From contig JAICYC010000018.1 of the NCBI GenBank assembly GCA_025934395.1, forward strand, positions 1 through 47,675: a stretch of DNA of 47,675 nucleotides, read 5' to 3'. The DNA comes from Solirubrobacteraceae bacterium. GTDB taxonomy: Bacteria > Actinomycetota > Thermoleophilia > Solirubrobacterales > Solirubrobacteraceae. Both the position numbers and the translations under genes were made by a program. Shown in pieces: positions 4,926 to 45,349 of this stretch. The notes under the pieces are model-generated. The model did no database searches. It saw only the letters and a program-made list of their open reading frames with translations, and was not told the origin of the DNA. How positions within the stretch are numbered: the first letter of the stretch is position 1; each line of letters starts with the position of its first letter.

Positions 4926-4931
4926 GCGCCG

Positions 4932-4937
4932 AGGCTA
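4932..4937 (-). promoter_or_regulatory. Leaderless-type -10 box, quinone oxidoreductase
   Basis: TAGCCT ends 6 nt before the ATG at 4925, so transcription would begin at or next to the start codon. No Shine-Dalgarno sequence intervenes. Confidence 0.55.
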
Positions 4938-5002
4938 TCGGAGGAGCGTCCGCCGGGTCCGGGCGGGGTCCGATCCGGCCGCAGCCGTCCGTCTGGTTGC
5001 TC

Positions 5003-5008
5003 TATGGT
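5003..5008 (+). promoter_or_regulatory. Leaderless-type -10 box, PfkB kinase
   Basis: TATGGT ends 8 nt before the ATG at 5017. The intervening GCGCGCCC has no ribosome-binding character. Confidence 0.55.
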
Positions 5009-5016
5009 GCGCGCCC

Positions 5017-5979
5017 ATGCCTATCACCGTGGTGGGATCGATCGCCTTCGACACGGTCAAGACGCCGTTCGGAGAGCGCGAGCGGATGCTCGGCGGCGCA
5101 GCGGTTCACTTCGCTCTCGCAGCGGCGTTCTGCGCCGAGGTCCACGTCGTCGGGCCCGTGGGCGACGACTTCGGCGAGACCGAGCTCGACGTGCTGCGCA
5201 GCCGCGGCGTGGACGTGAGCGACGTCGAGCGGATCGACGGCGGGCGCACGTTCTTCTGGGCGGGCGAGTACGGCTGGGACCTGAACTCGCGCGAGACGCT
5301 CGACACCCAGTTGGGCGTGTTCGAGGGCTTCCAGCCGAAGCTCTCGGACGCCTCGCGGGCGAGCGACGTGCTGTTCCTGGCCAACATCCAGCCGGAGCTG
5401 CAGCTCGACGTACGCGCGCAGCTCCCCGCCGCGCGCTTCGTCGCGCTCGACTCGATGAACCTCTGGATCGACATCGCCCGCGAGGAGCTCGCGCGCGCGA
5501 TCGCGAGCGTCGACTGCGTGATCCTCAACGATGCCGAGCTGCGCCAGCTCACGGGCAAGCCGAACCTCGTCTCCGCTGCGCGCGAGGTGCTCGGCTGGGA
5601 CGCCGCCGAGGGCACGCGGGGGCCGAGCGTGATCGTCGCCAAGCAGGGCGAGTACGGCGCCGCGCTCATCACGCGCGAGGAGTTCTTCGCGCTGCCCGCC
5701 TACCCCCTCGAGACCGTGATCGACCCCACGGGGGCGGGCGACACGTTCGCGGGCGGCTTCGTCTCCTACATCGCCGCGCACCCCGAGGAGGAGACCGCAG
5801 GACCCCTGCTGCGCCGCGCGATGGCGCACGCCACCGTGCTCGCGTCGTTCAACGTCGAGGAGTTCGGCACCGAGCGCGTGCAGCGGCTGACGGGCGCGGA
5901 GATCCGCAGCCGCACCGACGAGCTCGGCGCGATGACACGCTTCGAGGCGGGCGCGTCGGAGCTCTCGCTAGGCGCCTGA
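5017..5979 (+). CDS. PfkB-family sugar/nucleoside kinase
   Basis: A 320-residue ribokinase-like kinase. The N-terminal GG element is present (LGGAAVHFA, sugar binding), and the second PfkB signature DPTGAGDTFAGGF starts at residue 236, with catalytic Asp242 and the anion hole GAG. The family phosphorylates sugars or nucleosides; this member resembles adenosine-kinase/ribokinase-type proteins, but the substrate cannot be fixed from sequence. The start is the ATG 8 nt after a TATGGT box; upstream in-frame codons overlap the divergent promoter of the oxidoreductase and are unlikely to be translated. Confidence 0.9.
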   Translation: MPITVVGSIAFDTVKTPFGERERMLGGAAVHFALAAAFCAEVHVVGPVGDDFGETELDVLRSRGVDVSDVERIDGGRTFFWAGEYGWDLNSRETLDTQLGVFEGFQPKLSDASRASDVLFLANIQPELQLDVRAQLPAARFVALDSMNLWIDIAREELARAIASVDCVILNDAELRQLTGKPNLVSAAREVLGWDAAEGTRGPSVIVAKQGEYGAALITREEFFALPAYPLETVIDPTGAGDTFAGGFVSYIAAHPEEETAGPLLRRAMAHATVLASFNVEEFGTERVQRLTGAEIRSRTDELGAMTRFEAGASELSLGA

Positions 5980-6039
5980 GCGAAGCGGACCGCACCCGCT
6001 CCCATCGCGCAGCGGGTTGTGCCGCGCCGAGACCGGGTA

Positions 6040-6045
6040 TACGAT
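6040..6045 (+). promoter_or_regulatory. Leaderless-type -10 box, small membrane protein
   Basis: TACGAT ends 8 nt before the GTG at 6054; it supports that GTG over the ATG at 6072. Confidence 0.4.
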
Positions 6046-6053
6046 CGTCATCA

Positions 6054-6326
6054 GTGGACGTCTGGACCTTCATGTGGCTGATGCTGTTTCTGAAGATCCC
6101 GATCGTCGCGCTGTTCCTGATCGTGCGCTGGGCCGTCAAGCAGACGCCCGAGACCGCGGAGGGACAGGACGGCGGGATCGGTCCGAGGCCGCGCCCGCAG
6201 CACCCGCACCACCCGCGCCCGCGGCTGCCCAGGACGCCGCGCCGCGGCCCCCACGGAGCGCCCTCGCCGCCCTCGCCTGCGCGCGTGCGGGCGATCTCGG
6301 CGCGGCAGCGCCTCCCGCGCGCTTGA
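6054..6326 (+). CDS. Small single-pass membrane protein with Pro/Arg/His-rich tail
   Basis: A 90-residue frame from GTG with one strong hydrophobic segment at residues 5-27 (FMWLMLFLKIPIVALFLIV), then RWAVKQTPE and a cytoplasmic-looking tail rich in Pro, Arg and His (RPRPQHPHHPRPR). It belongs to no family I recognise. It lies between the PfkB kinase and citrate synthase genes and has its own promoter-like box. The membrane segment looks real; the low-complexity tail could reflect GC-rich drift, so the 3' end of the functional protein is less sure. Confidence 0.55.
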   Translation: MDVWTFMWLMLFLKIPIVALFLIVRWAVKQTPETAEGQDGGIGPRPRPQHPHHPRPRLPRTPRRGPHGAPSPPSPARVRAISARQRLPRA

Positions 6327-6369
6327 GCGCGATCCGCCGATGCCCGCGTGCTCACACGCGCGCGTCGCT

Positions 6370-6375
6370 CATAAT
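6370..6375 (+). promoter_or_regulatory. -10 box of citrate synthase (leadered)
   Basis: CATAAT lies 39 nt before the ATG at 6415, with a Shine-Dalgarno sequence (TAGGAG) between. This contrasts with the leaderless genes on either side. Confidence 0.45.
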
Positions 6376-6414
6376 CGATCTCAGAGCCTTCGCAACCGCC
6401 GATAGGAGAAGCCG

Positions 6415-7797: not shown

Positions 7798-7812
7798 CGC
7801 CTGCGTGCAGCC

Positions 7813-8223: not shown

Positions 8224-8229
8224 GCGGGA

Positions 8230-8235
8230 AACCTA
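8230..8235 (-). promoter_or_regulatory. Leaderless-type -10 box, cNMP-binding protein
   Basis: TAGGTT ends 6 nt before the ATG at 8223. Confidence 0.5.
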
Positions 8236-8263
8236 CTACCGGATGCGCCGCGCCGACTGCCGC

Positions 8264-8929: not shown

Positions 8930-8937
8930 GGTCAATG

Positions 8938-8943
8938 AATGTA
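8938..8943 (-). promoter_or_regulatory. Leaderless-type -10 box, YgjP-like gene
   Basis: TACATT ends 8 nt before the GTG at 8929 and decides between that codon and the TTG at 8935. Confidence 0.45.
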
Positions 8944-8983
8944 GGGGGCCCGCCGGGCAACATCGGCGGACGGCGGCTCGGGC

Positions 8984-8989: not shown

Positions 8990-8995
8990 GGGCGC

Positions 8996-9736
8996 GTGAG
9001 CTCCCAGGGCAGCCGCGCCGAGGCGATCGGGACCTTCGACGAGCACCTGCTGGGTTGGCTGGGCGACGAGCCCGACGCGGTCGGCGACGCGCGCCGCATC
9101 CGCGAGATCGCCGAGGAGTTCGCCGAAGGTTTCTCCACGCTCGCGACGATCGGACCCGCGGTGACCGTGTTCGGCTCGGCGCGAACGCCGCGCGACCATC
9201 CCGACTACGCGCTGGCGCGAGAGGTCGGCGCGTGCCTCGCGCGAGCGGGCTACGCGGTGATCACGGGCGGCGGCGGTGGGGCGATGGAGGGCGCCAACCG
9301 TGGCGCGCGCGAGCAGGGAGGGGTGTCGGTGGGCTGCAACATCGAGCTGCCGCACGAGCAGGCGCTCAACGACTACGTCGACATCGGCATCCGCTTCCGC
9401 CACTTCTTCGCGCGCAAGGTGATGTTCGTGCGCTACGCGAGCGCGTTCGTGATCTGCCCCGGTGGGTTCGGCACGCTCGACGAGCTGTTCGAGTCGCTCA
9501 CGCTGATCCAGACCGGCACGATCCGCCACTTCCCCGTGCTGCTCGCGGGCGACGGGTGCTGGGAGGCGATGCTCCGGTGGCTGCGCGAGACGGCGCTCGC
9601 GGGCGAGCGGATCGACCCCGAGGACCTCGACATCATGCGCGTCGTGCCCGACCCCGCGGAGATCGGCCCGATCGTCGACGCGGCATACAGGCGCCAGCAG
9701 GCCGAGCCGCGCACCAAGCCGCTGCCGGGCGCGTAG
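8996..9736 (+). CDS. LOG family protein (TIGR00730-like nucleotide phosphoribohydrolase)
   Basis: A 246-residue Rossmann protein of the LOG/'lysine decarboxylase-like' family. The signature PGGFGTLDE and the ITGGGGGAMEGANRGA nucleotide-binding stretch are present. Family members cleave nucleoside 5'-monophosphates to free base and ribose 5-phosphate; the name lysine decarboxylase is historical. The first 50 residues form an extension before VTVFGSART. The GTG start is 6 nt after a TATCGT box. Confidence 0.9.
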   Translation: MSSQGSRAEAIGTFDEHLLGWLGDEPDAVGDARRIREIAEEFAEGFSTLATIGPAVTVFGSARTPRDHPDYALAREVGACLARAGYAVITGGGGGAMEGANRGAREQGGVSVGCNIELPHEQALNDYVDIGIRFRHFFARKVMFVRYASAFVICPGGFGTLDELFESLTLIQTGTIRHFPVLLAGDGCWEAMLRWLRETALAGERIDPEDLDIMRVVPDPAEIGPIVDAAYRRQQAEPRTKPLPGA

Positions 9737-9739
9737 GCT
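9734..9739 (+). promoter_or_regulatory. Leaderless-type -10 box overlapping the LOG stop codon
   Basis: TAGGCT begins with the TAG stop of the LOG gene and ends 7 nt before the ATG at 9747, so the next gene may have its own leaderless transcript. Confidence 0.45.
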
Positions 9740-9746: not shown

Positions 9747-10025
9747 ATGGCGCGCTCGCTCGTGCGACTCCCACCGGAGGTGCGCAGCCCCTACGAGGTG
9801 TTCGTGAACGGGGTTGCGCAGGAGCTCGGCGTGGACTACAACCTCCACGAAGGCGTGCTCGTGTTCGACCGCGAGCTGCGCAAGGACAGGATCAGCGGCT
9901 GGCGCTGGCTGCTGGGCGCGTGGGGCGTGGGCACCTATCGTCAGAACGACTCCGTGGACGTCCGCTACGAGGCCCGCGACGGCTCGCCGCGCCTGGCGGA
10001 GGGCCTGGAGATCGAGCCCGGATAG
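9747..10025 (+). CDS. Small protein of unknown function
   Basis: A 92-residue protein; no family recognised. It has a mixed alpha/beta look: a SPYEVFVNG turn, LHEGVLVFDRELRKDRISG, then GTYRQNDSVDVRYE, a pattern seen in small beta-rich cytoplasmic proteins. No signal peptide or membrane span. It starts 10 nt after LOG and probably is co-expressed with it as well as from its own box. Confidence 0.75.
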   Translation: MARSLVRLPPEVRSPYEVFVNGVAQELGVDYNLHEGVLVFDRELRKDRISGWRWLLGAWGVGTYRQNDSVDVRYEARDGSPRLAEGLEIEPG

Positions 10026-10954: not shown

Positions 10955-10960
10955 ATTATG
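10955..10960 (-). promoter_or_regulatory. -10 box of metF embedded in the upstream stop codon
   Basis: CATAAT on the minus strand contains the TAA stop of the MBL gene and ends 6 nt before the metF ATG. Confidence 0.45.
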
Positions 10961-11948
10961 CAGCCCAGCGCTCGGGCTCACCGGCGATCCGCGTCACGCC
11001 GCCGGTGCTCTCGAGGTGGGTGAGGTACCCGAGGGTCTGGGAGAGGAGCCACTGGCCGTTCTGCTGGGAGAGCTCCTCGCCGTAAACACGGCCCACCACG
11101 TCGAACGCGGTGAGCGGCTCCTCGCCGACGGCGGTGAGCACCTTGTAGAGATGGTCCTCCACGAGCGCACGGTTGCCGTGGATGTGGGCGTGGACGTCGG
11201 CGAAGGTACGGCCGTGCCCGGCCAGGCACAGCCGCGCGCCGAGGCGCTCGACGACATCGAGCGAGCGCAGGAACTCGCCCACCGGGTTGGACGAGTAGCC
11301 GTACTCGAAGTACAGCGAGATCCGCCCCAGCAGGTGGTCGCCGGAGATCAGCAGCCGCCGCTCGGGCTGGAACAGGCACACGTGCGACGGCGCGTGCCCG
11401 GGTGTCTCGTAGGCGATCCACTCGCCGAGGTCCGTCTGCACGGTGACGCCGTCGACGAGCTCGCGGTCGGCCTGCAGGGGACCCACGATCAGCGGCTCGG
11501 AGTTGCCGCGCTGGGCGGCGTAGCGCCGGAGGGGCTCCTCGGGCACCCCGCTCTGGCGCGCCACCTCCAGGCGCCGCGCGAGCACAGCCTCGGGGTCGTC
11601 GACCATGCGGCTCATCAGCTCGTGGCTGGGATGCATCCACAGCTCGCATTCGGCCCGCTGGACGATCGGCACCGCCTGGCCGCAGTGGTCGGAGTGGGCG
11701 TGGGTGCACACCACGAGCCGCACGTCCGCGATCGAGAGCCCGCACATCGCGAGCGCCCGTTCGAGCTGCTCCATCGAGTGCTCGTCGTGTACGCCGGTGT
11801 CGACGAGCACGAACCCGTCCCCGGCCTGGAGCGCCCATGCGTTGCAGTGCGGGACGCCCGGCCAGGGGAGCGGCAGACGCAGCCTGTAGACCCCGCGCAG
11901 CACGCGCTCGCCACGGCCCAGCTCACGCTTTGCGGTCGCATCGGGCAC
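10956..11948 (-). CDS. MBL-fold hydrolase with C-terminal helical domain (LACTB2-like)
   Basis: A 330-residue metallo-beta-lactamase-fold protein. Metal ligands appear in THAHSDHCGQ (HxHxDH), ETPGHAPSHV, ISGDHLLG and LAGHGR. After about residue 235 comes a helical stretch (VHAHIHGNRALVEDHLYKVL, then LGYLTHLESTGGV) like the winged-helix tail of LACTB2/RNase-related proteins. Substrate is not predictable. The GTG start at 11948 is 7 nt after TAGTCT. It lies directly upstream of metF and likely is co-transcribed with it. Confidence 0.87.
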   Translation of the reverse strand: MPDATAKRELGRGERVLRGVYRLRLPLPWPGVPHCNAWALQAGDGFVLVDTGVHDEHSMEQLERALAMCGLSIADVRLVVCTHAHSDHCGQAVPIVQRAECELWMHPSHELMSRMVDDPEAVLARRLEVARQSGVPEEPLRRYAAQRGNSEPLIVGPLQADRELVDGVTVQTDLGEWIAYETPGHAPSHVCLFQPERRLLISGDHLLGRISLYFEYGYSSNPVGEFLRSLDVVERLGARLCLAGHGRTFADVHAHIHGNRALVEDHLYKVLTAVGEEPLTAFDVVGRVYGEELSQQNGQWLLSQTLGYLTHLESTGGVTRIAGEPERWAA

Positions 11949-11955
11949 GGCGCGC

Positions 11956-11966
11956 AGACTAGACTA
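11956..11966. promoter_or_regulatory. Overlapping divergent -10 boxes
   Basis: One short stretch reads TAGTCT on the minus strand (11956-11961, for the MBL gene, 7 nt from GTG) and TAGACT on the plus strand (11960-11965, for the SnoaL-MBL fusion, leadered). A second minus-strand TAGTCT overlaps at 11961-11966. The two polymerases could not bind at once. Confidence 0.45.
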
Positions 11967-11995
11967 CGCGCCCTGAGTCGATGAGGGAGGAAGGG

Positions 11996-13288
11996 ATGTC
12001 CGAGCAGGAGACGGGCGCGGGTAGCGAGGTCAGCGCGAAGGTGCAGGAGGCGGCGGCGAGCCTTCAGGCAGCCGCTCCGCGGAAACGCATCTCGGGCGGC
12101 AAGGGCCAGACCGAGGCGGTCGCGCGCCGGTACTTCGACGCGATCACGGCACACGACGTCGACACCGCCACCGCGCAGTGGGCGCCCGACGGCCTCGACC
12201 GCGTGCACGGGCGCTTCGAGGTGCAGGGCCCCGAAGGGGTGCGCGGCTTCATCGAGAGCCTGTACGGCGCGATGCCCGATGCGCGATTCGAGATCCTCTC
12301 GACGACGACCGAGGGCGAGCGCTGCAGCGTGCGCTGGCGCCTGCGCGGCACGTTCGTCGGCCCCGGCAGCTTCGACGGCGTAGCCCCCACCGGCAGCCCG
12401 ATCGACCTCGAGGGGATCGACCTCGTGACCGTGCGCGACGGGTTGATCGTGAGCAACGACGCGTACACGGACGGGATGACGTTCGCGCGCCAGGTGGGGA
12501 TGGTGCCCGCGAAGGACTCCGGCGGCGAACGGCGGATGCTGGGCGCGTTCAACGCGCGCACACGCCTGGTGGAGCGCCTCTCCCACGGCGAGCCGGGGCT
12601 CGTTGCCGAGGGGGTGTGGGTGGTGCAGGGGCAGCCCGCGCGCTGCAACGTGTACCTGATCGAGGACGACGGCGGCGTGACGATGTTCGACGCGGGCGCG
12701 CGCACGATGGTCCGCTCGGTCGCCTCGGCGGCGGCGAAGCTCGGCGGGCTGAAGCGAGTGGTGCTCGGACACGGCCACACCGACCACCGCGGCACCGCCC
12801 CGTACCTGGGCGTGCCCGTGTTCTGCCACCCCGACGAGGTCGAGGACGCGGAGGGCAGCGGCGGCTTCCGCTACTGGCCGCAGGGGCTCGAGGGTGTACC
12901 GGCGCCGCACCGCCAGCTGCACATGCTGCTGCACCGCCGAGCGTGGGACGGCGGGCCGGTGAAGATCGCCGGCACGGTCTCCGAGGGCGAGGAGGTGGCG
13001 GGCTTCAAGGTGATCCACATCCCGGGCCACGCGCCCGGCATGATCGCGCTGTGGCGCGAGAGCGACCGGCTCGCGCTGACGAGCGACTGCTTCTACACGC
13101 TCGACCTCTGGGGGCGCAACTGCGACCCGGTGGTGCCGATCGCGACCTACAACTACGACACCGAGCAGGCCCGCGAGAGCATTCGCAAGATCGCGGCGCT
13201 CGAGCCCGCGGCGGCATGGCCGGGACACGCCCAGCCCGTCACGGGCGACGTGCGCGCGGCGCTCGAACGCGCGGCCGACACCACCTGA
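11996..13288 (+). CDS. SnoaL-like/NTF2 domain fused to an MBL-fold hydrolase
   Basis: A 430-residue two-domain protein. Residues about 45-165 form a SnoaL/NTF2-like cone (ARRYFDAITAHDVDTATAQW, then RGFIESLYGAMPDARFEI). Residues about 185-420 form an MBL domain with LGHGHTDHRGT (HxHxDH), HIPGHAPGM, LTSDCFY and AWPGHAQPV. The first domain type usually binds or isomerises small hydrophobic compounds; the second hydrolyses esters, thioesters or amides. The function of the pair is unknown. The ATG at 11996 is chosen over that at 11981 because GAGGGAGGAAGG lies directly before it. Confidence 0.87.
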   Translation: MSEQETGAGSEVSAKVQEAAASLQAAAPRKRISGGKGQTEAVARRYFDAITAHDVDTATAQWAPDGLDRVHGRFEVQGPEGVRGFIESLYGAMPDARFEILSTTTEGERCSVRWRLRGTFVGPGSFDGVAPTGSPIDLEGIDLVTVRDGLIVSNDAYTDGMTFARQVGMVPAKDSGGERRMLGAFNARTRLVERLSHGEPGLVAEGVWVVQGQPARCNVYLIEDDGGVTMFDAGARTMVRSVASAAAKLGGLKRVVLGHGHTDHRGTAPYLGVPVFCHPDEVEDAEGSGGFRYWPQGLEGVPAPHRQLHMLLHRRAWDGGPVKIAGTVSEGEEVAGFKVIHIPGHAPGMIALWRESDRLALTSDCFYTLDLWGRNCDPVVPIATYNYDTEQARESIRKIAALEPAAAWPGHAQPVTGDVRAALERAADTT

Positions 13289-13900: not shown

Positions 13901-13906
13901 ATGCTA
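13901..13906 (-). promoter_or_regulatory. Leaderless-type -10 box, 77-residue protein
   Basis: TAGCAT ends 7 nt before the ATG at 13893. Confidence 0.45.
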
Positions 13907-13990: not shown

Positions 13991-13996
13991 TACGTT
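13991..13996 (+). promoter_or_regulatory. Leaderless-type -10 box, pyruvate kinase
   Basis: TACGTT ends 6 nt before the ATG at 14003. Confidence 0.5.
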
Positions 13997-17903: not shown

Positions 17904-17909
17904 ATTATC
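17904..17909 (-). promoter_or_regulatory. Leaderless-type -10 box, PP2C phosphatase
   Basis: GATAAT, the best match to TATAAT in the window, ends 6 nt before the GTG at 17897. It would let the phosphatase and the STAS-HATPase gene be transcribed apart from the ABC1-type kinase gene. Confidence 0.5.
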
Positions 17910-19373: not shown

Positions 19374-19379
19374 ATGCTA
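19374..19379 (-). promoter_or_regulatory. Leaderless-type -10 box, ABC1-type kinase
   Basis: TAGCAT ends 7 nt before the ATG at 19366. Confidence 0.5.
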
Positions 19380-21597: not shown

Positions 21598-21603
21598 AGT
21601 CTA
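21598..21603 (-). promoter_or_regulatory. Leaderless-type -10 box, purD
   Basis: TAGACT on the minus strand ends 7 nt before the GTG at 21590. Confidence 0.5.
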
Positions 21604-21669: not shown

Positions 21670-21675
21670 TAGACT
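21670..21675 (+). promoter_or_regulatory. Leaderless-type -10 box, glyoxalase I
   Basis: TAGACT ends 7 nt before the ATG at 21683. The same hexamer and spacing serve purD on the opposite strand. Confidence 0.5.
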
Positions 21676-23904: not shown

Positions 23905-23910
23905 TACTCT
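23905..23910 (+). promoter_or_regulatory. Leaderless-type -10 box, 110-residue unknown protein
   Basis: TACTCT ends 9 nt before the GTG at 23920. Confidence 0.35.
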
Positions 23911-26790: not shown

Positions 26791-26796
26791 AGTCTA
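26791..26796 (-). promoter_or_regulatory. Leaderless-type -10 box, FAD oxidase
   Basis: TAGACT ends 7 nt before the GTG at 26783. Confidence 0.5.
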
Positions 26797-26842: not shown

Positions 26843-26848
26843 TAGCCT
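26843..26848 (+). promoter_or_regulatory. Leaderless-type -10 box, NUDIX protein
   Basis: TAGCCT ends 8 nt before the GTG at 26857. Confidence 0.5.
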
Positions 26849-27531: not shown

Positions 27532-27872
27532 GCCACGAGCTGCGCGCCGGCGCGGGACCCCTCACGTTCGCGCGGCTGAAGTGGACGTCCTTCACCCACT
27601 CGTGCGTCTACATCGCGCTGCTCCTCAGCGCCTTCGCCGCGGGCGGGCCCCAGCCGCTGACGTTCATCCTCGGCCTCGCGCACGGGGTCCTGTGGATCCT
27701 CATGTCGCTCGCGTGCATCGCTGCCGCACGCCTTCGCGTGGTCACCCTGCGCACGGCTGTCGCGGTGGCGGTGCTGGGCGGCGTGGGGCCCTTCTTCGGC
27801 AGCCTCGAGTTCGTTCGTGAGCAGCGGCGGCGCACGCGGTCAACAGGGTCCAGCCGCTCGATAGAGTTGTAG
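27528..27872 (+). CDS. DUF3817 integral membrane protein
   Basis: A 114-residue protein with three likely membrane spans (about 21-39, 42-65 and 71-90) and the family marks GLAHGVLWI and GGVGPFFGSLEFV. Members are small actinobacterial membrane proteins of unknown role. The GTG start overlaps the NUDIX stop by four bases; the stop is 4 bp before the ATG of the 2-oxoglutarate dehydrogenase gene. Confidence 0.85.
   Translation: MSHELRAGAGPLTFARLKWTSFTHSCVYIALLLSAFAAGGPQPLTFILGLAHGVLWILMSLACIAAARLRVVTLRTAVAVAVLGGVGPFFGSLEFVREQRRRTRSTGSSRSIEL
27862..27867 (+). promoter_or_regulatory. Leaderless-type -10 box, 2-oxoglutarate dehydrogenase fusion
   Basis: TAGAGT lies inside the last codons of the DUF3817 gene and ends 9 nt before the ATG at 27877. 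Read-through from NUDIX-DUF3817 is also possible. Confidence 0.35.
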
Positions 27873-27876: not shown

Positions 27877-30800
27877 ATGGCTACGGAGACGACGACGCAG
27901 CAAACGGTGGACGTCGTGACCCCGGCCGCGGGGGAGTCGGTCACCGAGGGAACGATCCTCGAATGGCGTGTCAAGGTCGGCGACCCGATCAAGGTCGACG
28001 ACACGATCGTCGAGATCTCCACCGACAAGGTCGACGTGGAGCTGCCCGCGCCCGCCACCGGCACCGTCAGCGAGATCCTCGTCGCCGAGGGCGACACCGT
28101 CACGGTCGGCCAGGTGATCGCGCGGATCGCCGTCGGCGCGGGGTCCGCAGCGGCGCCCGCCGAGCCCGCGCCGTCCGAACCCGCCCAGACGGACGCGAAC
28201 GGGGACGCAACGCCCGCAGAGGACGCCGCGCCCGCTCCCCCTGCTTCCCCGGCGCAGGCGTCCGCCGATCACGCCCCCGACAGCGACGGGCTCGCAGCCG
28301 CTGGAAGCGTCGTCGACGTGCTCACCCCTGCGGCCGGCGAGTCGGTCACGGAGGGCACGATCCTCGAATGGCGCGTGGAGCTGGGTGGGTCGATCAAGGC
28401 CAACGACACGATCGTGGAGATCTCCACCGACAAGGTCGACGTCGAGCTGCCCGCGCCCGCCACCGGGACCGTCAGCGAGATCCTCGTCGCAGAGGGCGAC
28501 ACCGTCACGGTCGGCCAGGTGATCGCGCGGATCGCGGTCGGCTCGGACGCCGCCCCGAGCGCCCCGGCCGCGTCTGCGCCGGCGCCGGCGCCCCAAACGG
28601 CGATCCCCGACGGCGCGCGCGTATCGCCCGTCGCAGCGCGCGCTGCGGCGGCCAAGGGCGTTGACCTCGCTGCGGTTGCCGGGAGCGGGCCCGCCGGGCG
28701 CATCACGAAGTCCGATGTGCTCTCCGCCGCGGGAGGCGAGAGCAACGGCGCAGCGGCCACCGTCGCAGCGCCCGCCGCGCGCGAGGCGAGCTCCGAGCCG
28801 CTGCGTGGCGGCGCGGCCGCGCTCGCGCGTTACATGGAGGCCTCGCGCGAGATCCCCACCGCGACGAGCTTCCGCACGATCACGGTCACGATGCTCGCGG
28901 GGCGCCGCGCGGAGCTCAAGGCCGCGGGCCAGCGCGTGTCGTTCACCCACCTGATCGCATACGCGATCGCGCGGGCAGCGCAGGAGATGCCCGTGATGGG
29001 CACGCACTTCGCCGAAGTGGAGGGCAAGCCGCACCGCATCGATGACGGCCAGGTGAACCTCGGGCTCGCTGTGGACGTGGAGAAGAAGGACGGCAGCCGC
29101 ACGCTGATGGTGCCCGTCATCCGCAACGCAGCAGCGCAGCGCTTCGACGGCTTCCTCGCGGCCTACGACGCGCTCGTGGAGAAGGCTCGCACGAACACGC
29201 TCACCGCGGACGACCTCACCGGCGCCAACATAAGCCTCACGAACCCCGGCGGCCTCGGCACGGTCGCGTCGGTCCCCCGGCTGATGAACGGCCAGGGCAC
29301 GATCATCGCCACCGGCTCTATCGCGTACCCGGTGGGGCTCGAGGGCGTCGGCGCGCAGGTGGGCGCGGAGAAGGTCATGACGATGACCTCAACCTACGAC
29401 CACCGCATCATCCAGGGCGCGGAGTCGGGGCGGTTCCTCGCCCGGATCGAGGCGCTGCTGCAGGGCGAGGACGGCTTCTACGAGGACGTGTTCGCGGCGC
29501 TCGGCGTGGCGCTCGGCGCTGCGCCGCAGGCGCCCGCGCCCACGACGCCGCTGCCCACCGCTGCGCGCAGCACGGGAGCGCCCGAATTCGCCGCCAGCGA
29601 GGATCTGCTGAAGGGGGTGCAGGCGGTCACCACGTTCGTGAGCCGCGTGCGCGGCCACGGCCACCTCGCCGCCAAACTCGACCCCCTGGGATCCGAGCCG
29701 GAGGGCGATCCCGGCCTCGACCCGGTCGCGCTCGGCCTCACGCCGGAGATCGTCGCGAAGCTCCCCGCGGACATCTTCCAGATGTACGTGTCCGGCGCGA
29801 CGCTCGCCGATGCGCTGCCGCACCTCGTGGACACCTACTGCGGCACCAGCGCGTACGAGATCGAGCACATCGCCTCGCACCGCCAGCGGATTTGGCTGCG
29901 CGAGCACATCGAGTCCGGCGCGTTCCGCCACGCGCTCACCAACGACGAGAAGCGCTCGCTGTTCCGCCGCCTGATCGAGGTTGACGCGCTGGAGCGCTTC
30001 ATGCACAAGGCCTACCTCGGCCAGCACCAGTTCTCGATCGAGGGCCTCGACATGACCGTGCCGATGCTCGACGAGATGATCCAGCTCTCCGCCGCGCACG
30101 GCGGCCAGGAGGTCGTCGTGGGCATGGCGCACCGCGGGCGCCTCAACGTGCTCGCGCACAACCTCGGCCGCGCCTACGACACGATCTTCGCGGAGTTCGA
30201 GGGCGCCTCGACGCTGGAGGCGATCACCACGATCCCGCAGGGCGGCACGGGCGACGTGAAGTACCACCACGGCACGCAGGGCACCTACGAGCTGCCCGAC
30301 GGGAACACGATCCGCGTGAACCTCGAGTCCAACCCGAGCCACCTCGAGTTCGTCTCCGCGGTGGTCGAGGGCGCGACGCGCGCCGCGCAGACCTCGCGCC
30401 GCGGGATGCACGCGATCCAGGACACCGACGCCGCCGTGCCGATCGTGATCCACGGCGACGCGTCGTTCCCGAGCCAGGGCGTGGTCGCCGAGACGCTCAA
30501 CCTGCAGGCGCTCGACGGCTACAAGGTCGGCGGCACGATCCACCTGATCATGAACAACCAGGTGGGGTTCACCACCGACCCCGACGACGCCCGCTCCACC
30601 CGCTGGGCGTCCGACCTGGCCAAGGGCTTCGACGTGCCGATCATCCACGTCAACGCCGACGACGTCACCGCGTGCATCGCAGCGGTGCGGCTCGCGTTCG
30701 CGTTCCGCAAAGAGTTCGGGCACGACGTGCTGATCGATCTGATCGGCTACCGCCGCTTCGGCCACAACGAGTCCGACGAGCCCGCCTACACGCAGCCCGA

Positions 30801-32253
30801 GATGTACGCCACGATCAAGAGCAAGAAGCGCGTCTCGGAGCTGTGGGCCGACCGGCTCGTCGCCGAGGGGGTCCTCTCCCAGGAGGAGGTCGACCGCCAG
30901 GGCCAGGAGGTCTGGGACAACCTCACGCTCCTGCACCAGCGCCTGAAGGCCAAGATCGAGGCCGCAGCCGAGCACGACAACGGCCACAGCACCGGGGAGT
31001 ACCAGCTCGACCGGTCCCCGAGCCCCGACGTCGACACCGCCGTCCCCGCGGTGCGCCTGCGTGAGCTCGGCGAGCAGCTCCTGCGCGTGCCGGACGGCTT
31101 CACCGTCCACCCCAAGCTCGTCAAACAGCTCGACCGCCGGCGCGAGGTCCTCGCCGACCCGGACGCGGGCGTCCACGGGATCGACTGGGCACACGCGGAG
31201 GCGCTCGCGTTCGCGTCGCTGCTCACCGAGGGCACGCCGCTGCGGCTGACCGGCCAGGACACCGAGCGCGGCACGTTCAGCCAGCGCCACATGGTGCTGC
31301 ACGACGCCAAGACCGGCCAGACGATGTGCCCGATCCAGTCGTTGCCCGAGGCGCTCGCGCCGATGGAGCTTCACAACAGCCCGCTGTCCGAGCTCGCGTG
31401 CATGGGGTTCGAGTACGGCTACAGCCAGGAGGCCCCAGAGACGCTCGTGCTGTGGGAGGCGCAGTTCGGGGACTTCGTCAACAGCGCGCAGGTGATCGTC
31501 GACCAGTTCATCGTGTCGGGCCTTGCGAAGTGGGGGCAGACCTCTCGCCTCACGCTGCTGCTGCCCCACGGCTACGAGGGTTCCGGGCCCGAGCACTCCT
31601 CCGCGCGGCTCGAGCGGTTCCTCGCGCTCGCCGCAGAGGGCAACATCCGCGTGGCGAGCCCCACCACGCCCGCGCAGTACTTCCACCTGCTGCGCCGTCA
31701 GGCGCGGATCGCCAAGCAGCGCCCGCTGATCGTGATGACGCCCAAGTCGCTGCTGCGCCTGCCCCAGGCGGCGAGCTCGATCGCGGAGATGGCCGAGAAC
31801 ACCCGCTTCCACCCCGTCCTTCCGGAGCCAGGGATCGACGACTCCAAGGTCACGCGCATGGTGCTCTGCACGGGCAAGATCTACTACGACCTCGTGGGCC
31901 ACTCCGAGCGGCCCTCGCACGTGGGCCTCGCGGTTGCGCGCGTCGAGCTTCTCTATCCGTTCCCCGAAGGCCAGATCCTCGAGCTGATGGCGCGCTATCC
32001 GAACCTGCGCGAGGTGCTGTGGGTGCAGGAGGAGCCGCGCAACATGGGCGCGCGCGCACACATGTTCCCGCGCCTCATGCAGATCATGCCCCCCGAGATG
32101 CACTTCGGCTACATCGGGCGACCCGAGCGCGCGAGCCCCGGCGAGGGCTACCCCGCCGCCCACGCGATCGAACAGAACCGGATCGTCACCACCGCGATCG
32201 ACCTGCGCCAGCCGATATCCCAGTACCCGCGCAAGACACCAGGCGAGCGCTGA
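27877..32253 (+). CDS. kgd: Fused 2-oxoglutarate dehydrogenase: two lipoyl domains, PSBD, E2o and E1o
   Basis: A single 1458-residue chain carrying most of the 2-oxoglutarate dehydrogenase complex, which converts 2-oxoglutarate to succinyl-CoA in the TCA cycle. Domains: lipoyl 1 (11-87, lipoyl-lysine Lys51 in STDKVDV); Ala/Pro linker; lipoyl 2 (146-222, Lys186); Ala/Pro linker; peripheral-subunit-binding domain (about 249-283, VSPVAARAAAAKGVDL then GPAGRITKSDV); E2 catalytic domain (about 310-540, with TSTYDHRIIQGAESG, His509); E1 (about 574-1458) with YHHGTQGTYELPDG, the ThDP-type GDASFPSQGVVAET, NNQVGFTT and YRRFGHNESDEPAYTQP. The E2-E1 part is like mycobacterial Kgd and corynebacterial OdhA, which lack lipoyl domains; here they are built in. 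E3 (lipoamide dehydrogenase) is not in the window. The ATG is 9 nt after TAGAGT. Confidence 0.95.
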   Translation: MATETTTQQTVDVVTPAAGESVTEGTILEWRVKVGDPIKVDDTIVEISTDKVDVELPAPATGTVSEILVAEGDTVTVGQVIARIAVGAGSAAAPAEPAPSEPAQTDANGDATPAEDAAPAPPASPAQASADHAPDSDGLAAAGSVVDVLTPAAGESVTEGTILEWRVELGGSIKANDTIVEISTDKVDVELPAPATGTVSEILVAEGDTVTVGQVIARIAVGSDAAPSAPAASAPAPAPQTAIPDGARVSPVAARAAAAKGVDLAAVAGSGPAGRITKSDVLSAAGGESNGAAATVAAPAAREASSEPLRGGAAALARYMEASREIPTATSFRTITVTMLAGRRAELKAAGQRVSFTHLIAYAIARAAQEMPVMGTHFAEVEGKPHRIDDGQVNLGLAVDVEKKDGSRTLMVPVIRNAAAQRFDGFLAAYDALVEKARTNTLTADDLTGANISLTNPGGLGTVASVPRLMNGQGTIIATGSIAYPVGLEGVGAQVGAEKVMTMTSTYDHRIIQGAESGRFLARIEALLQGEDGFYEDVFAALGVALGAAPQAPAPTTPLPTAARSTGAPEFAASEDLLKGVQAVTTFVSRVRGHGHLAAKLDPLGSEPEGDPGLDPVALGLTPEIVAKLPADIFQMYVSGATLADALPHLVDTYCGTSAYEIEHIASHRQRIWLREHIESGAFRHALTNDEKRSLFRRLIEVDALERFMHKAYLGQHQFSIEGLDMTVPMLDEMIQLSAAHGGQEVVVGMAHRGRLNVLAHNLGRAYDTIFAEFEGASTLEAITTIPQGGTGDVKYHHGTQGTYELPDGNTIRVNLESNPSHLEFVSAVVEGATRAAQTSRRGMHAIQDTDAAVPIVIHGDASFPSQGVVAETLNLQALDGYKVGGTIHLIMNNQVGFTTDPDDARSTRWASDLAKGFDVPIIHVNADDVTACIAAVRLAFAFRKEFGHDVLIDLIGYRRFGHNESDEPAYTQPEMYATIKSKKRVSELWADRLVAEGVLSQEEVDRQGQEVWDNLTLLHQRLKAKIEAAAEHDNGHSTGEYQLDRSPSPDVDTAVPAVRLRELGEQLLRVPDGFTVHPKLVKQLDRRREVLADPDAGVHGIDWAHAEALAFASLLTEGTPLRLTGQDTERGTFSQRHMVLHDAKTGQTMCPIQSLPEALAPMELHNSPLSELACMGFEYGYSQEAPETLVLWEAQFGDFVNSAQVIVDQFIVSGLAKWGQTSRLTLLLPHGYEGSGPEHSSARLERFLALAAEGNIRVASPTTPAQYFHLLRRQARIAKQRPLIVMTPKSLLRLPQAASSIAEMAENTRFHPVLPEPGIDDSKVTRMVLCTGKIYYDLVGHSERPSHVGLAVARVELLYPFPEGQILELMARYPNLREVLWVQEEPRNMGARAHMFPRLMQIMPPEMHFGYIGRPERASPGEGYPAAHAIEQNRIVTTAIDLRQPISQYPRKTPGER
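28000..28137 (+). repeat. Lipoyl-domain DNA repeat, copy 1
   Basis: Codons 42-87 of the fusion gene. By hand alignment this differs from copy 2 at only 5 of 138 bases, all synonymous. Confidence 0.85.
28405..28542 (+). repeat. Lipoyl-domain DNA repeat, copy 2
   Basis: Codons 177-222 of the fusion gene; encodes the same 46 residues as copy 1. Confidence 0.85.
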
Positions 32254-34288: not shown

Positions 34289-34294
34289 ACGGTA
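34289..34294 (-). promoter_or_regulatory. Leaderless-type -10 box, nucS
   Basis: TACCGT ends 6 nt before the ATG at 34282. Confidence 0.5.
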
Positions 34295-34325
34295 CCCGCC
34301 GCGCCGGACCTACCGGTGTGTCGCT

Positions 34326-34534: not shown

Positions 34535-34540
34535 ACGCTA
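34535..34540 (-). promoter_or_regulatory. Leaderless-type -10 box, tatA
   Basis: TAGCGT ends 8 nt before the ATG at 34526. Confidence 0.5.
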
Positions 34541-35284: not shown

Positions 35285-36337
35285 CTAGCTCGCGCGCGCG
35301 ATGCCCGGCTCGATCGCGAGCGCCTGGGCGATCAGCTCCGGCACGTCGCCGTCGGCGCCGAGCTTGCTCGCCCGGCGCAACGCGCTCAGCGCCCCCTCGC
35401 GGTCCATCAGGCTCAGGCGCAGGCGGCCGAGCCGCTCCCACGCGCCCGCGTCGCCGGGGCCACGCTCGGCGGCCCGGGCGGCGGCCTCCTCGGCGAGGTC
35501 GACCGCGCCCATGTCTTCGTAGATGCGCGCCGCGAACCGGTGCGCGGCGGGCCGGTCGCCGTCGACCCTCGCCCAGTCACGGACGGCGCGCGCCGCCTCC
35601 TCGAGCTTGCCCGCGTTCCAGAACGCGAGCGTCATCAACCGCAGCACGGCCACGTTGCGCGGTTCGGCATCGCGCGCGTAGATCAGGCGCTGGGCGGCGA
35701 GCTCGTACTCGCCGTCCGCCATCGCCCGTTGGGCAGCCAGCATGAAGCGCTCGACGCGCTCCTCGGCGGGGTCGGGTTTGGAGAAGTCGACGAAGCGCAT
35801 GCTGCCCGCGGGCACCGTGCGGATCCCGTGGCTGAATTTCACGCGCGCCCATTGCTGGGTCTCGCCGCCATCGGGCGCGTCGGTGAAGTAGATCCCCGCC
35901 ACCGTGCCCACCCCCCACTCCGGGTAGGACTGGCAGCGCGCGTAGCGGTGAACCACCGAGTGGTCGGGAACCCGGCTGCCGAACGGGTCGTGCTTGGCGC
36001 GATCCTTGGCTTCGGCGCGGGCGCGCTGCTCGGCTTCGTATGCGCGCCTGCCCGCCTCCTCGCGCGCGCGGCGAGCCGCGGCGGCGCTCACTTTGACGGC
36101 ATTCTGGGAGACGCGGCCGCCACGCGAGGACTCCGCCAGGCGCTCGAGCTGGTCGGCGGCCTCGTTGATCGCCTTGAGATGGCGCTCGTGCTCGTACTGG
36201 CGCCCCTGCGGCGCCACGTCGGGGTGCCAGCGCTTGGCCATCTTGCGCCGGGCGAGCTGGACGTCGCGCTTGTCGAACGGGGCGTCGAGCTCGAGCAGGA
36301 GCAGGTGCTGCTCGATATCGAGGACCGGACCAGGCAT
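35285..36337 (-). CDS. J-domain-like protein with SH3-like insert and TPR repeats
   Basis: A 350-residue protein. Residues about 5-65 resemble a J domain, with [13 protein letters not shown] including the HPD tripeptide needed to stimulate DnaK. A charged coiled segment ([20 protein letters not shown]) follows, then a beta-rich region ([11 protein letters not shown], then [18 protein letters not shown]) like a small SH3/KOW barrel, then about four TPR-type helical pairs from residue 190 on. It may be a DnaK co-chaperone or scaffold. The ATG at 36337 is chosen because a TAACGT box lies 10 nt upstream and the J-like region starts right after it. Confidence 0.75.
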
Positions 36338-36347
36338 AGACCCGTCA

Positions 36348-36353
36348 ACGTTA
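36348..36353 (-). promoter_or_regulatory. Leaderless-type -10 box, J-domain/TPR gene
   Basis: TAACGT ends 10 nt before the ATG at 36337; looser spacing than the others. Confidence 0.3.
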
Positions 36354-36371
36354 GCGACCGGCACAACGTCC

Positions 36372-36377
36372 TATCCT
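36372..36377 (+). promoter_or_regulatory. Leaderless-type -10 box, ettA
   Basis: TATCCT ends 8 nt before the ATG at 36386. Confidence 0.5.
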
Positions 36378-36385
36378 GCGTGCGG

Positions 36386-38033
<1,648 letters not shown>

Positions 38034-38911: not shown

Positions 38912-38917
38912 TAGGGT
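38912..38917 (+). promoter_or_regulatory. Leaderless-type -10 box, cupin protein
   Basis: TAGGGT ends 6 nt before the ATG at 38924. Confidence 0.5.
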
Positions 38918-40508: not shown

Positions 40509-43372
<2,864 letters not shown>

Positions 43373-43401
43373 CGGCTCTCCCGCGTTCGTGGTCTCTCTT
43401 A

Positions 43402-43435
43402 CAGCGGCAGTCTCGCAGAGTCACCGCTGCGAGAC
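43402..43435. promoter_or_regulatory. Two mutually exclusive dyads upstream of aconitase
   Basis: GTCTCGCAG (43410-43418) pairs with CTGCGAGAC (43427-43435). CAGCGG (43402-43407) pairs with CCGCTG (43424-43429). The right arms overlap, so only one can form. They lie 30-63 nt before the aconitase ATG, in its promoter or leader. Confidence 0.5.
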
Positions 43436-43481
43436 CGCGGATCGGGTAAGCATCAGGACGACGACCGATGAGTTCGTCGGG

Positions 43482-43495
43482 TGGGACCGGTCCCA
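43482..43495. promoter_or_regulatory. 14-bp operator-like palindrome upstream of DUF899 gene
   Basis: TGGGACCGGTCCCA is a perfect palindrome 84 bp before the DUF899 ATG, in the 206-bp divergent region shared with aconitase. The rest of that region shows no gene. Confidence 0.5.
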
Positions 43496-43578
43496 TCAGC
43501 GAAGGTCGTGGGCGACGATCGCCGCATCAGAACGGACGAGCGCGCACACGACACGGCGCACGCGAAAGGAGGGCCACG

Positions 43579-44337
43579 ATGTCCAGCCACACCACAGGTA
43601 CACGAGAGGAATGGCAGGCCGCGCGCGAGGAGCTCGCCAACCTGGAGGCCGAGCACGCGCAGCTGGGCGAGCGGGTGACCGAGCAGCGCCGCGAGCTGCC
43701 CTGGGTCCCGGTGGAGCGCGAGTACGTGTTCGACACCGAGGACGGCAAGAAGACGCTCGAGGAGCTCTTCGAAGGCCGCTCGCAGCTGCTCGCCTACAAC
43801 ATCATGTTCGGCCCCGACTACTCGCGCGGCGCCTGCCCGGGCTGCACGAGCCTTGGAGACGAGTTCAGCATGCCGCACCTGCACATGGGCCACCGCGACG
43901 TGACCCTGATCTGCTTCTCGCGCGCACCGATCGACCGTCTGATCGCCTACAAGCAGCGCATGGGCTGGGAGTTCCCGTACGTGTCGACCTACGGCAGCGA
44001 GTTCCCCTTCGACTTCGGGCTCGCGTTGACGCCCGAGCAGGCTCAGCAGATACCCGAGCTGCAGGGGATCCTGGCCGATCCGCCCGTCTGGATGACCGAG
44101 TGGAGCGAACAGGTGGGCGCGAAACTGGAGGATGGCCTGCGCGAGATGCCGGGCTACGTCGCCTTCGCGCGCGAGGACGGGCGCGTCTACCACACCTACA
44201 CCGTCACCGCTCCCGATCCGTTCGTCTCGCCGTTCTTCTCGTTCCTGCTCAAGCGCACACCCAAGCCCGGCCCCGCCGAGCCGCGCTCCTGGCGCAAGGA
44301 CGAATACCCGGAGAGCTCTAGGTCGGCGCGCGCGTGA
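43579..44337 (+). CDS. DUF899 thioredoxin-like protein
   Basis: A 252-residue DUF899 protein. The family core reads LPWVPVEREYVFD, LLAYNIMFGPDYSRGACPGC and ICFSRAPIDRLIAYKQRMGW. The fold is thioredoxin-like, with a CPGC motif in the usual redox position; the function is unknown. The ATG follows AAAGGAGG six bases upstream, so the longer frame from 43468 is rejected. It overlaps the 3' end of the GGDEF gene by 20 bp, tail to tail. Confidence 0.88.
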   Translation: MSSHTTGTREEWQAAREELANLEAEHAQLGERVTEQRRELPWVPVEREYVFDTEDGKKTLEELFEGRSQLLAYNIMFGPDYSRGACPGCTSLGDEFSMPHLHMGHRDVTLICFSRAPIDRLIAYKQRMGWEFPYVSTYGSEFPFDFGLALTPEQAQQIPELQGILADPPVWMTEWSEQVGAKLEDGLREMPGYVAFAREDGRVYHTYTVTAPDPFVSPFFSFLLKRTPKPGPAEPRSWRKDEYPESSRSARA

Positions 44338-45337
44338 CCCGGCCCTTGCCCTGGCGCTTGGCGCGCAGCAGCGCCTGATCGCAGGCGGCGAGCAGCTCGT
44401 CGGTGCTCATCGACGACTCCCACTGGGAGGCGCCGACCGAGGCCGACACGCCCACAGCGCCCTCGACGGCGACGCGGCGCAGGCGCTCCAGCGCCCGGTT
44501 GGCGGCCGCCGTGGCGGCTTCGAGCGTGGCGTTCGGCAGGATCACCACGAACTCGTCTCCGCCGTAGCGCGCGACGCGATCGAAGGCGCGGAACTCACCG
44601 ACGAGCGCGCCCACCACGCCGCGCAACATCGCGTCCCCCGCCGGGTGGCCGTGCCGGTCGTTCATCGCCTTGAAGTCGTCGAGGTCGATCAGCAGGCACG
44701 ACAGCGGCGCGCCGCTGCGCATCGCACGCCCGATCTCCTCATCGAGCCGGCGCCGCATCGCGCGGTGGTTCATCGCGCCGGTCACCGCATCGGTGCCTGC
44801 TTCGGCGCGCGCACGGACGAGCGCGAGGGCTGTGCCCGCCTGCTCGACCAGCGCGCTCGCGATCGAAACAGCCGACTCGTCGAACACCGAGCCCTCGCGC
44901 CGAACGAGCGTGACGACCGCTTCGACGCCGCCGCGGCCGGCGAGTGGGAGCAGCAGCGCTGCGGCCATCGCGCCCGTGTCGGCGAGGCGGGGCATGCTGC
45001 TCGCGAGCTCCTCGCTGTCGCCCGCGAGGAAGCTGCGTCCGGTGCCCGCCACCCAACCCACCCCCGGCGAGCGCTCGCTCCGCGGCTGCAGGTAGCTGAG
45101 CCGTCCCGCCGCTCCCGGGAGATAGACCATCACCAGGTCGTCCTCGCGCACTCCGAGACGCTGGACGTGGACCTCCTGGGCGCCCGGCGCCGAGATCAGC
45201 TCGGCCGCGAGCGCCGCGAAGATCGTCTCGGAGTCCACAGCCGACTCGGCGAGCGCGCTCAGGCGCCGGATCCCCGCAAGCAGTCGCTCCATCCCCCCGG
45301 ATGACGCGTCGGCATCCTTACCGGCTACGACCTCCAT
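44318..45337 (-). CDS. GAF-GGDEF diguanylate cyclase
   Basis: A 339-residue cytoplasmic protein. Residues about 20-175 look like a GAF sensor; residues 180-335 are a GGDEF domain that makes cyclic di-GMP. The active site is RYGGDEFVVIL (GGDEF 259-263), the metal Asp lies in IDLDDFKAMND, and an RxxD inhibitory site (RAFD, 250-253) is five residues upstream, so product inhibition is expected. No EAL domain is attached. The ATG is 6 nt after TAGATT. Confidence 0.93.
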   Translation of the reverse strand: MEVVAGKDADASSGGMERLLAGIRRLSALAESAVDSETIFAALAAELISAPGAQEVHVQRLGVREDDLVMVYLPGAAGRLSYLQPRSERSPGVGWVAGTGRSFLAGDSEELASSMPRLADTGAMAAALLLPLAGRGGVEAVVTLVRREGSVFDESAVSIASALVEQAGTALALVRARAEAGTDAVTGAMNHRAMRRRLDEEIGRAMRSGAPLSCLLIDLDDFKAMNDRHGHPAGDAMLRGVVGALVGEFRAFDRVARYGGDEFVVILPNATLEAATAAANRALERLRRVAVEGAVGVSASVGASQWESSMSTDELLAACDQALLRAKRQGKGRVTRAPT

Positions 45338-45343
45338 ACAGAG

Positions 45344-45349
45344 AATCTA
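45344..45349 (-). promoter_or_regulatory. Leaderless-type -10 box, GGDEF gene
   Basis: TAGATT ends 6 nt before the ATG at 45337. Confidence 0.5.

What the first reader, a model, noticed from the sequence alone, without database searches (positions are those of the whole stretch)
4926..45349. Window-wide leaderless promoter signature: TAnnnT 6-10 nt before the start codon
About 25 genes on both strands have a TAnnnT-like hexamer (or TATAAT-like GATAAT/CATAAT) ending 6-10 nt before the start codon, without a Shine-Dalgarno sequence. Examples: 4932, 8230, 8984, 9734, 13901, 13991, 17904, 19374, 21598, 21670, 26791, 34289, 36372, 38912, 45344. A second class (aldehyde dehydrogenase, cyclophilin, citrate synthase, SnoaL-MBL fusion, small secreted protein, crotonase, aconitase, DUF899) has a clear Shine-Dalgarno sequence and, where seen, a more distant -10. 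Since a -10 box lies about 7 nt before the transcript start, the first class should be leaderless. Leaderless genes are known to be common in actinobacteria; the regularity here looks genome-wide and corrects several starts.
Basis: partly seen in the sequence, partly recalled or inferred. Interest (0 to 1): 0.72.

Follow-up and report, generated by a model that had tools for sequence, protein, structure and literature searches.

The report
Leaderless gene promoters in an actinobacterium
About a quarter of this uncultured actinobacterium's genes carry a promoter box so close to the start codon that their messenger RNAs should begin at or within a few bases of the start codon, a known habit of actinobacteria that is shown here for another lineage.

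Summary
All 15 listed hexamers stand at the stated coordinates, 6-8 nt before a start codon. With a gene caller blind to upstream motifs, TANNNT ends 6-10 nt before the start in 18 of 42 window genes (shuffle mean 0.7) and in 98 of 407 genes from 448 kb of the same genome (shuffle mean 6.0), against 9 of 9673 ATG/GTG triplets inside genes. With starts revised and GATAAT/CATAAT allowed: 25 of 43. Such genes lack Shine-Dalgarno pairing (3 of 99 against 67 of 308). Same-genus orthologs keep the hexamer in 78 of 96 cases, against 10 of 75 for other genes. No -35 is visible. The M. smegmatis ortholog of one window gene, nucS, is leaderless by 5'-RACE (PMC12649562); its box stands in 30 of 30 near and 24 of 27 wider nucS loci read. 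A new lineage, not a new mechanism.

The parts
4932..4937 (-). -10 box TAGCCT, spacer 6 to ATG 4925 (zinc alcohol dehydrogenase family)
   Evidence: kept in 5 of 5 same-genus orthologs
5003..5008 (+). -10 box TATGGT, spacer 8 to ATG 5017 (PfkB kinase)
   Evidence: 4 of 5 orthologs
6040..6045 (+). -10 box TACGAT, spacer 8 to GTG 6054 (90 aa, weak coding score)
   Evidence: 4 of 4 orthologs
8230..8235 (-). -10 box TAGGTT, spacer 6 to ATG 8223 (cNMP-binding domain)
   Evidence: no ortholog passed the filter
8938..8943 (-). -10 box TACATT, spacer 8 to revised start GTG 8929 (YgjP-like metallopeptidase)
   Evidence: 5 of 5 orthologs have a TA-led start, shifted by 1-7 codons
8984..8989 (+). -10 box TATCGT, spacer 6 to GTG 8996 (lysine-decarboxylase-like/SLOG protein)
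   Evidence: no ortholog passed the filter
9734..9739 (+). -10 box TAGGCT, spacer 7 to ATG 9747 (92 aa, no Pfam match)
   Evidence: 0 of 4 orthologs have TANNNT in range, the four carry CATAAT instead
10955..10960 (-). -10 box CATAAT, spacer 6 to ATG 10948 (MTHFR)
   Evidence: 4 of 5 orthologs have CATAAT or TANNNT in range
11956..11961 (-). -10 box TAGTCT, spacer 7 to GTG 11948 (metallo-beta-lactamase fold protein)
   Evidence: 5 of 5 orthologs
11960..11965 (+). TAGACT, proposed distant -10 box of the leadered SnoaL-MBL gene (start 11996), overlapping the box of the divergent gene
   Evidence: spacer 30; sequence printed
11985..11995 (+). GGGAGGAAGGG, Shine-Dalgarno sequence of the SnoaL-MBL gene, start ATG 11996
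   Evidence: orthologs have AAGGAG- or AGGAGG-like sequence before a nearby start
13901..13906 (-). -10 box TAGCAT, spacer 7 to revised start ATG 13893 (77 aa)
   Evidence: 4 of 5 orthologs
13991..13996 (+). -10 box TACGTT, spacer 6 to ATG 14003 (pyruvate kinase)
   Evidence: 5 of 5 orthologs
17904..17909 (-). -10 box GATAAT, spacer 6 to GTG 17897 (GAF/SpoIIE domain protein)
   Evidence: no ortholog passed the filter
19374..19379 (-). -10 box TAGCAT, spacer 7 to ATG 19366 (ABC1 kinase family)
   Evidence: 5 of 5 orthologs
21598..21603 (-). -10 box TAGACT, spacer 7 to GTG 21590 (phosphoribosylglycinamide synthetase)
   Evidence: 3 of 3 orthologs
21670..21675 (+). -10 box TAGACT, spacer 7 to ATG 21683 (glyoxalase superfamily)
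   Evidence: 4 of 6 orthologs
23905..23910 (+). TACTCT, spacer 9 to GTG 23920 (weak case)
   Evidence: only 3 of 7 orthologs in range
26791..26796 (-). -10 box TAGACT, spacer 7 to GTG 26783 (FAD-linked oxidase)
   Evidence: 7 of 7 orthologs
26843..26848 (+). -10 box TAGCCT, spacer 8 to GTG 26857 (NUDIX)
   Evidence: 6 of 7 orthologs
27862..27867 (+). TAGAGT, spacer 9 to ATG 27877 (2-oxoglutarate dehydrogenase E1-E2 fusion)
   Evidence: 4 of 6 orthologs in range
34289..34294 (-). -10 box TACCGT, spacer 6 to ATG 34282 (nucS)
   Evidence: 30 of 30 loci of own genome and near relatives, 24 of 27 in a wider draw; M. smegmatis ortholog leaderless by 5'-RACE (PMC12649562)
34305..34308 (-). TCCG box, 10 nt upstream of the nucS -10 box
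34535..34540 (-). -10 box TAGCGT, spacer 8 to ATG 34526 (TatA/B/E)
   Evidence: 7 of 9 orthologs
36348..36353 (-). TAACGT, spacer 10 to revised start ATG 36337 (TPR protein)
   Evidence: 8 of 9 orthologs have a TA-led start at the matching codon
36372..36377 (+). -10 box TATCCT, spacer 8 to revised start ATG 36386 (ABC ATPase, two ABC domains)
   Evidence: 9 of 9 orthologs
38912..38917 (+). -10 box TAGGGT, spacer 6 to ATG 38924 (cupin-like, just under the Pfam cut-off)
   Evidence: 5 of 7 orthologs
45344..45349 (-). -10 box TAGATT, spacer 6 to revised start ATG 45337 (GAF-GGDEF)
   Evidence: 6 of 6 orthologs have a TA-led start, 4 of them at the aligned start

Best explanation
The hexamer is the -10 element of promoters that need no conserved -35, most likely those of the housekeeping sigma factor. 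It is placed so that RNA polymerase starts at, or within a few nucleotides of, the first base of the ATG/GTG. The mRNAs are therefore leaderless or nearly so, and are translated by direct recognition of the 5'-terminal start codon rather than by Shine-Dalgarno pairing. Leadered SD genes coexist with them. Shown here: the position-specific enrichment over a genome sample, its conservation, the lack of SD pairing and the absence of a visible -35. Inferred: the sigma factor, the transcript starts (measured only for the M. smegmatis nucS ortholog) and the translation mechanism (known from mycobacteria).
For: 98 of 407 genes against shuffle mean 5.98; sharp spacer peak at 6-9 with 0-4 elsewhere. 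Non-operon genes 87 of 284, all genes 99 of 407 at spacer 5-10; operon-internal 12 of 123 at spacer 5-9. SD duplex at or below -9 kcal/mol in 3 of 99 hexamer genes against 67 of 308 others, Fisher p 2.4e-6. Orthologs: 78 of 96 against 10 of 75. The 16S tail of one same-genus and five same-order relatives has an intact CCTCC, so SD-led translation is open to the lineage and not used by these genes. In nucS the upstream TCCG columns stay in register with the TANNNT box (T 29, C 30, C 26, G 28 of 31) while the box-to-start distance varies from 6 to 10, so the box goes with the promoter and not with the ribosome site. M. smegmatis nucS starts transcription on its start codon, with TANNNT and no -35 (PMC12649562, passages). 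M. tuberculosis: TANNNT centred 7-12 bp upstream of 73% of primary transcript starts, no conserved -35, 26% of genes with a primary start leaderless (PMC3898074, passages). Five named actinobacteria run through the same pipeline show the peak; E. coli K-12 with annotated starts does not (3 of 47, 6.2 expected).
Against: No transcript start is known for this organism. Spacers of 8-10 nt (42 of 98) may mean leaders of 1-4 nt, whereas in mycobacteria a start codon right at the 5' end is what leaderless translation needs (PMC4633059 abstract). The lack of SD is partly mechanical, because the hexamer fills 6 of the 18 nt scanned. Three of 12 unnamed comparison genomes show little or no excess (G083 3 of 87 and G173 3 of 75 with 1.0 expected each, G071 8 of 89 with 5.7 expected). 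One of these, G083, is of a genus whose NucS is 93-96% identical to that of a Streptomyces, where Zheng et al. did find the signal, so either my 100-kb samples undercount or the trait is uneven. The gene at 9747 has CATAAT rather than TANNNT in its 4 orthologs.
Confidence: 0.93

Rival explanations
1. The hexamer is an A/T-rich, unstructured translation enhancer in a leadered mRNA, like the A/T-rich non-SD ribosome sites reported for the FCB group (PMC9581028, passages), and the promoter lies further upstream.
For: It lies where a ribosome site would lie, and hexamer genes have no SD.
Against: Only TANNNT is strongly enriched; one-off variants among the remaining genes are near or little above background: [ACG]A...T 33 against 30.3, T[CGT]...T 34 against 25.8, TA...[ACG] 28 against 19.0. 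The clearer exceptions are [GC]ATAAT (6 against 0.2), as expected of a -10 box, and TT...T (11 against 3.2). In nucS the box keeps its distance to an upstream element and not to the start codon. The measured nucS transcript in M. smegmatis starts on the start codon.
Confidence: 0.03
2. Artefact of start calling: TAG/TAA stops just upstream of a start are favoured because an open frame must be closed there.
For: 59% of 94 boxes begin TAG.
Against: Boxes out of frame with the start (spacers 7 and 8: 47) are as common as boxes in frame (6 and 9: 47). TANNN followed by another base than T is only 28 against 19.0. Orthologs in other genomes repeat the box.
Confidence: 0.01
3. The boxes are real promoters, but many of these genes also have an upstream promoter giving leadered mRNAs, so leaderless transcripts are a minor form for them.
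For: M. tuberculosis has 47 genes with the option of both (PMC3898074, passage); 12 of 123 operon-internal genes here carry the box.
Against: Hardly any SD is left before these starts for a leadered mRNA to use (3 of 99).
Confidence: 0.15

Closest known systems
TA-led (leaderless) genes of Actinobacteria, Zheng et al. 2011 (PMC3160421; abstract and passages seen)
   Same: TANNNT about 12 bp before the start counted from the first T (spacer 6), genome-wide, middle three positions weakly informative at high G+C, alongside SD-led genes.
   Different: Lineage only. My strict fraction, 24% (99 of 407), lies within their actinobacterial range of 2.3-29.8%, mean 19.2%.
Leaderless transcriptome of Mycobacterium (PMC3898074 passages; PMC4633059 abstract and section 8)
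   Same: TANNNT -10, no conserved -35, ATG or GTG starts, no SD in the leaderless class, about a quarter of transcripts.
   Different: There transcript starts and N-termini were measured; here they are inferred.
GeneMarkS-2 class of bacterial genomes with mixed leaderless and leadered transcription (recounted in PMC9581028; passages seen)
   Same: Leaderless transcription in part of the genes, up to 40% of transcripts.
   Different: GeneMarkS-2 itself was not run here, and its own paper was not seen.

Membership tests
TA-led / leaderless genes of Actinobacteria | TANNNT at a fixed short distance from the start, above shuffled sequence | tested here: met
   98 of 407 against 5.98 +- 2.37; spacer peak 6-9
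TA-led / leaderless genes of Actinobacteria | No Shine-Dalgarno sequence in these genes, SD present in others | tested here: met
   3 of 99 against 67 of 308; 16S tail of one same-genus and five same-order relatives intact; own 16S not found in the assembly
TA-led / leaderless genes of Actinobacteria | Transcript starts at the start codon | not testable with these tools
   No RNA data; only the M. smegmatis nucS ortholog has a measured start (PMC12649562)
TA-led / leaderless genes of Actinobacteria | Mycobacterial-type promoter: no conserved -35 | tested here: met
   94 box promoters: at most 0.09 bit per position from -35 to -9 relative to the first T of the box, 0.16 at -8, 0.12 at -7, 0.23 at -1; no TTGAC-like excess at any spacing
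TA-led / leaderless genes of Actinobacteria | Organism is an actinobacterium | tested here: met
   The tool places genus g66 in the window's phylum, and NucS of five g66 loci is 93-96% identical to that of Streptomyces sennicomposti. Class not determined.
TA-led / leaderless genes of Actinobacteria | A start codon at the 5' end suffices for translation | not testable with these tools
   Known for mycobacteria (PMC4633059 abstract)

The most novel reading that the evidence does not exclude
In this lineage leaderless initiation is the leading mode: box genes exceed background by about 23% of the sampled genes, SD genes by only about 11-15% depending on the energy cut-off (my estimate). It is also an old, selected feature of particular genes: nucS, the mismatch-repair nuclease gene, would be leaderless in most actinobacteria that have it, and in this order it carries an extra TCCG promoter box that would be the site of an unknown regulator.
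Probability: 0.35. Interest if true: 0.42.

Novelty: new member of a known kind. Interest (0 to 1): 0.22.

Why it matters
It confirms that a promoter signature can be read from raw sequence of an uncultured genome and used to set start codons: at least four starts in this window change against a motif-blind call, with ortholog support. It adds another actinobacterial lineage to those with many leaderless genes, and points to nucS as a gene whose leaderless start appears to be kept over long distances.

Tried and rejected
Rejected: a stop-codon artefact (no frame preference of the boxes); general A/T-richness (one-off variants near background); loss of anti-SD in 16S (intact in the six relatives whose 16S end was read; own 16S not found). 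Looked for a -35 or another shared upstream element in 99 own box promoters and 67 from five relatives: none convincing; the scattered enriched 4-mers include GTCC at -15 (5 against 0.89, own and relatives pooled). Asked whether the nucS TCCG box marks a regulon: 18 sites in the own genome against 6 for the reversed pattern, but only 3 of 99 sampled own box promoters have it at that offset, so not settled. My gene caller is home-made; it mis-set at least five window starts (8923, 13863, 35960, 45292 and 11981, revised) and dropped the TPR gene starting at 36337 because of an overlap. Fractions for the 100-kb comparison samples (40 and 60 kb for Corynebacterium and Mycobacterium) are rough. By a simple SD pattern count, two of the three same-genus or same-family comparison genomes show no SD excess (G002 13 against 12 in the control stretch, G035 12 against 11; G031 18 against 7).
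Full report
The window is contig C103 of a 3.0-Mb, 151-contig genome (91.3% complete, 16S gene not found). The class was not determined.

I wrote a gene caller based on codon usage alone, so that starts were chosen without any upstream motif, and ran it on the window and on 20 stretches of 20 kb from the same genome (447,675 nt, 418 genes). 11 genes were dropped for lack of upstream context. In the remaining 407, the distance from the last T of TANNNT to the start codon peaks at 6, 7, 8, 9, 10 nt (25, 31, 16, 22, 4 genes); the other distances from 0 to 49 hold 0-4. Spacer 6-10 occurs in 98 of 407 genes against 5.98 +- 2.37 in 200 dinucleotide shuffles; in the window 18 of 42 against 0.72. ATG/GTG triplets inside genes, any frame, have it in 9 of 9673 cases. 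The box is commoner before divergent genes (49 of 134 at spacer 5-9) and same-strand genes with a gap of 25 nt or more (34 of 150) than inside operons (12 of 123).

With five starts revised and one dropped gene restored, 25 of 43 window genes carry TANNNT or [GC]ATAAT at spacer 5-10. That count is informed by the motif and by orthologs. The [GC]ATAAT form is itself enriched at this place (6 against a control mean of 0.2). In the sample, 20 of 197 non-operon genes without the box have it before another in-frame start within 20 codons, against 4 and 1 in the two wrong frames, so further starts are probably mis-set. For the revised window starts, orthologs in same-genus stretches have a TA-led start in 5 of 5 (8929; all shifted by 1-7 codons), 4 of 5 (13893), 9 of 9 (36386) and 6 of 6 cases (45337; 4 aligned, 2 shifted).

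Genes with the box lack SD pairing: duplex energy with the 16S tail at or below -9 kcal/mol in 3 of 99, against 67 of 308 of the rest. The scanned stretch includes the box, so part of this is mechanical. The 16S tail of one same-genus and five same-order relatives is the usual GGATCACCTCCTTTCT. No -35 motif is visible.

Conservation: 171 ortholog pairs in stretches of 11 same-genus genomes passed the filters (coverage at least 60%, identity at least 45%, alignment starting by residue 12, a start codon within 12 codons; pairs failing them were not counted). Where the window gene has the box, 78 of 96 orthologs have it at spacer 5-10; where it has not, 10 of 75. The genomes are related, so the pairs are not independent. 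Several genes switch class between species: cyclophilin is SD-like here and TA-led in both orthologs; the cupin-like gene is TA-led here and SD-like in at least one ortholog.

The nucS gene gives the best anchor. Its box is present at spacer 6-10 in 30 of 30 loci of the own genome and near relatives and at spacer 6-9 in 24 of 27 further loci of a phylum draw. Only the 30 best loci of each search were held, of 35 and 59 genomes with matches (three loci of the second were already in the first). Of 11 nucS loci in genomes with named loci, 10 have it; that of Luteimicrobium has not. In M. smegmatis the nucS transcript start coincides with the start codon, with TANNNT and no -35 (PMC12649562, passages). 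In 31 loci of this order a TCCG box sits 10 nt before the TANNNT box (columns T 29, C 30, C 26, G 28 of 31), while the distance from TANNNT to the start varies from 6 to 10. The TANNNT box therefore goes with the promoter.

The excess over background was about fourfold or more in 9 of 12 and weak or absent in 3 of 12 (G083, G173, G071). G083 belongs to the Streptomyces-like genus g66, so its low count (3 of 87) sits badly with the published signal in Streptomyces; my samples may undercount. Five named actinobacteria gave 8-24%, about fourfold or more. E. coli K-12, with annotated starts, gave 3 of 47 with 6.2 expected.

What is known: Zheng et al. 2011 (PMC3160421; abstract and passages) describe TANNNT about 12 bp before the start, call such genes leaderless, and find them in 86 of 89 actinobacterial genomes, 19.2% of genes on average (2.3-29.8%). 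Cortes et al. 2013 (PMC3898074, passages) and Shell et al. 2015 (PMC4633059, abstract and section 8) measured it in mycobacteria. A search for 'leaderless' with 'Thermoleophilia' found one paper, seen in passages only; since the class of this organism is unknown, this says little. A search for 'nucS' with 'leaderless' listed five papers, of which only PMC12649562 deals with nucS by its title; the other four were not opened.

Verdict: real, correctly interpreted, and an instance of a known actinobacterial trait.

Noticed in passing
34305-34308 (-) and loci L109-L139: nucS promoters of this order share a TCCG box 10 nt upstream of the -10 box (T 29, C 30, C 26, G 28 of 31 loci); rare at that place in other box promoters (3 of 99). 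Possibly a regulator site.
   Followed up: partly
genomes: nucS is patchy within the order: no match in the 9 searched genomes of family f3 and the 5 of family f4, a match in 27 of 37 of f1 (own included) and a strong one in 7 of 10 of f2; some absences may be assembly gaps.
   Followed up: no
11948-11996: Divergent pair with overlapping boxes: TAGTCT (-, 11956-11961) for a leaderless gene and TAGACT (+, 11960-11965) for an SD-led gene, sharing two base pairs.
   Followed up: partly
36337-36386: Divergent TPR and ABC-ATPase genes with starts 49 bp apart, both with a -10 box near the start, kept in 8 of 9 and 9 of 9 same-genus orthologs.
   Followed up: partly
window 2485(-), 38924(+), 43372(-) and orthologs: Orthologs switch between TA-led and SD-like starts within one genus, as Zheng et al. 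described between genomes.
   Followed up: no
27877-32253 (+): E1-E2 fusion of the 2-oxoglutarate dehydrogenase type, 1458 aa, with two lipoyl/biotin-type matches.
   Followed up: no
11996-13288 (+): Fusion of a SnoaL-like domain to a metallo-beta-lactamase fold domain, found also in stretches of five same-genus relatives.
   Followed up: no
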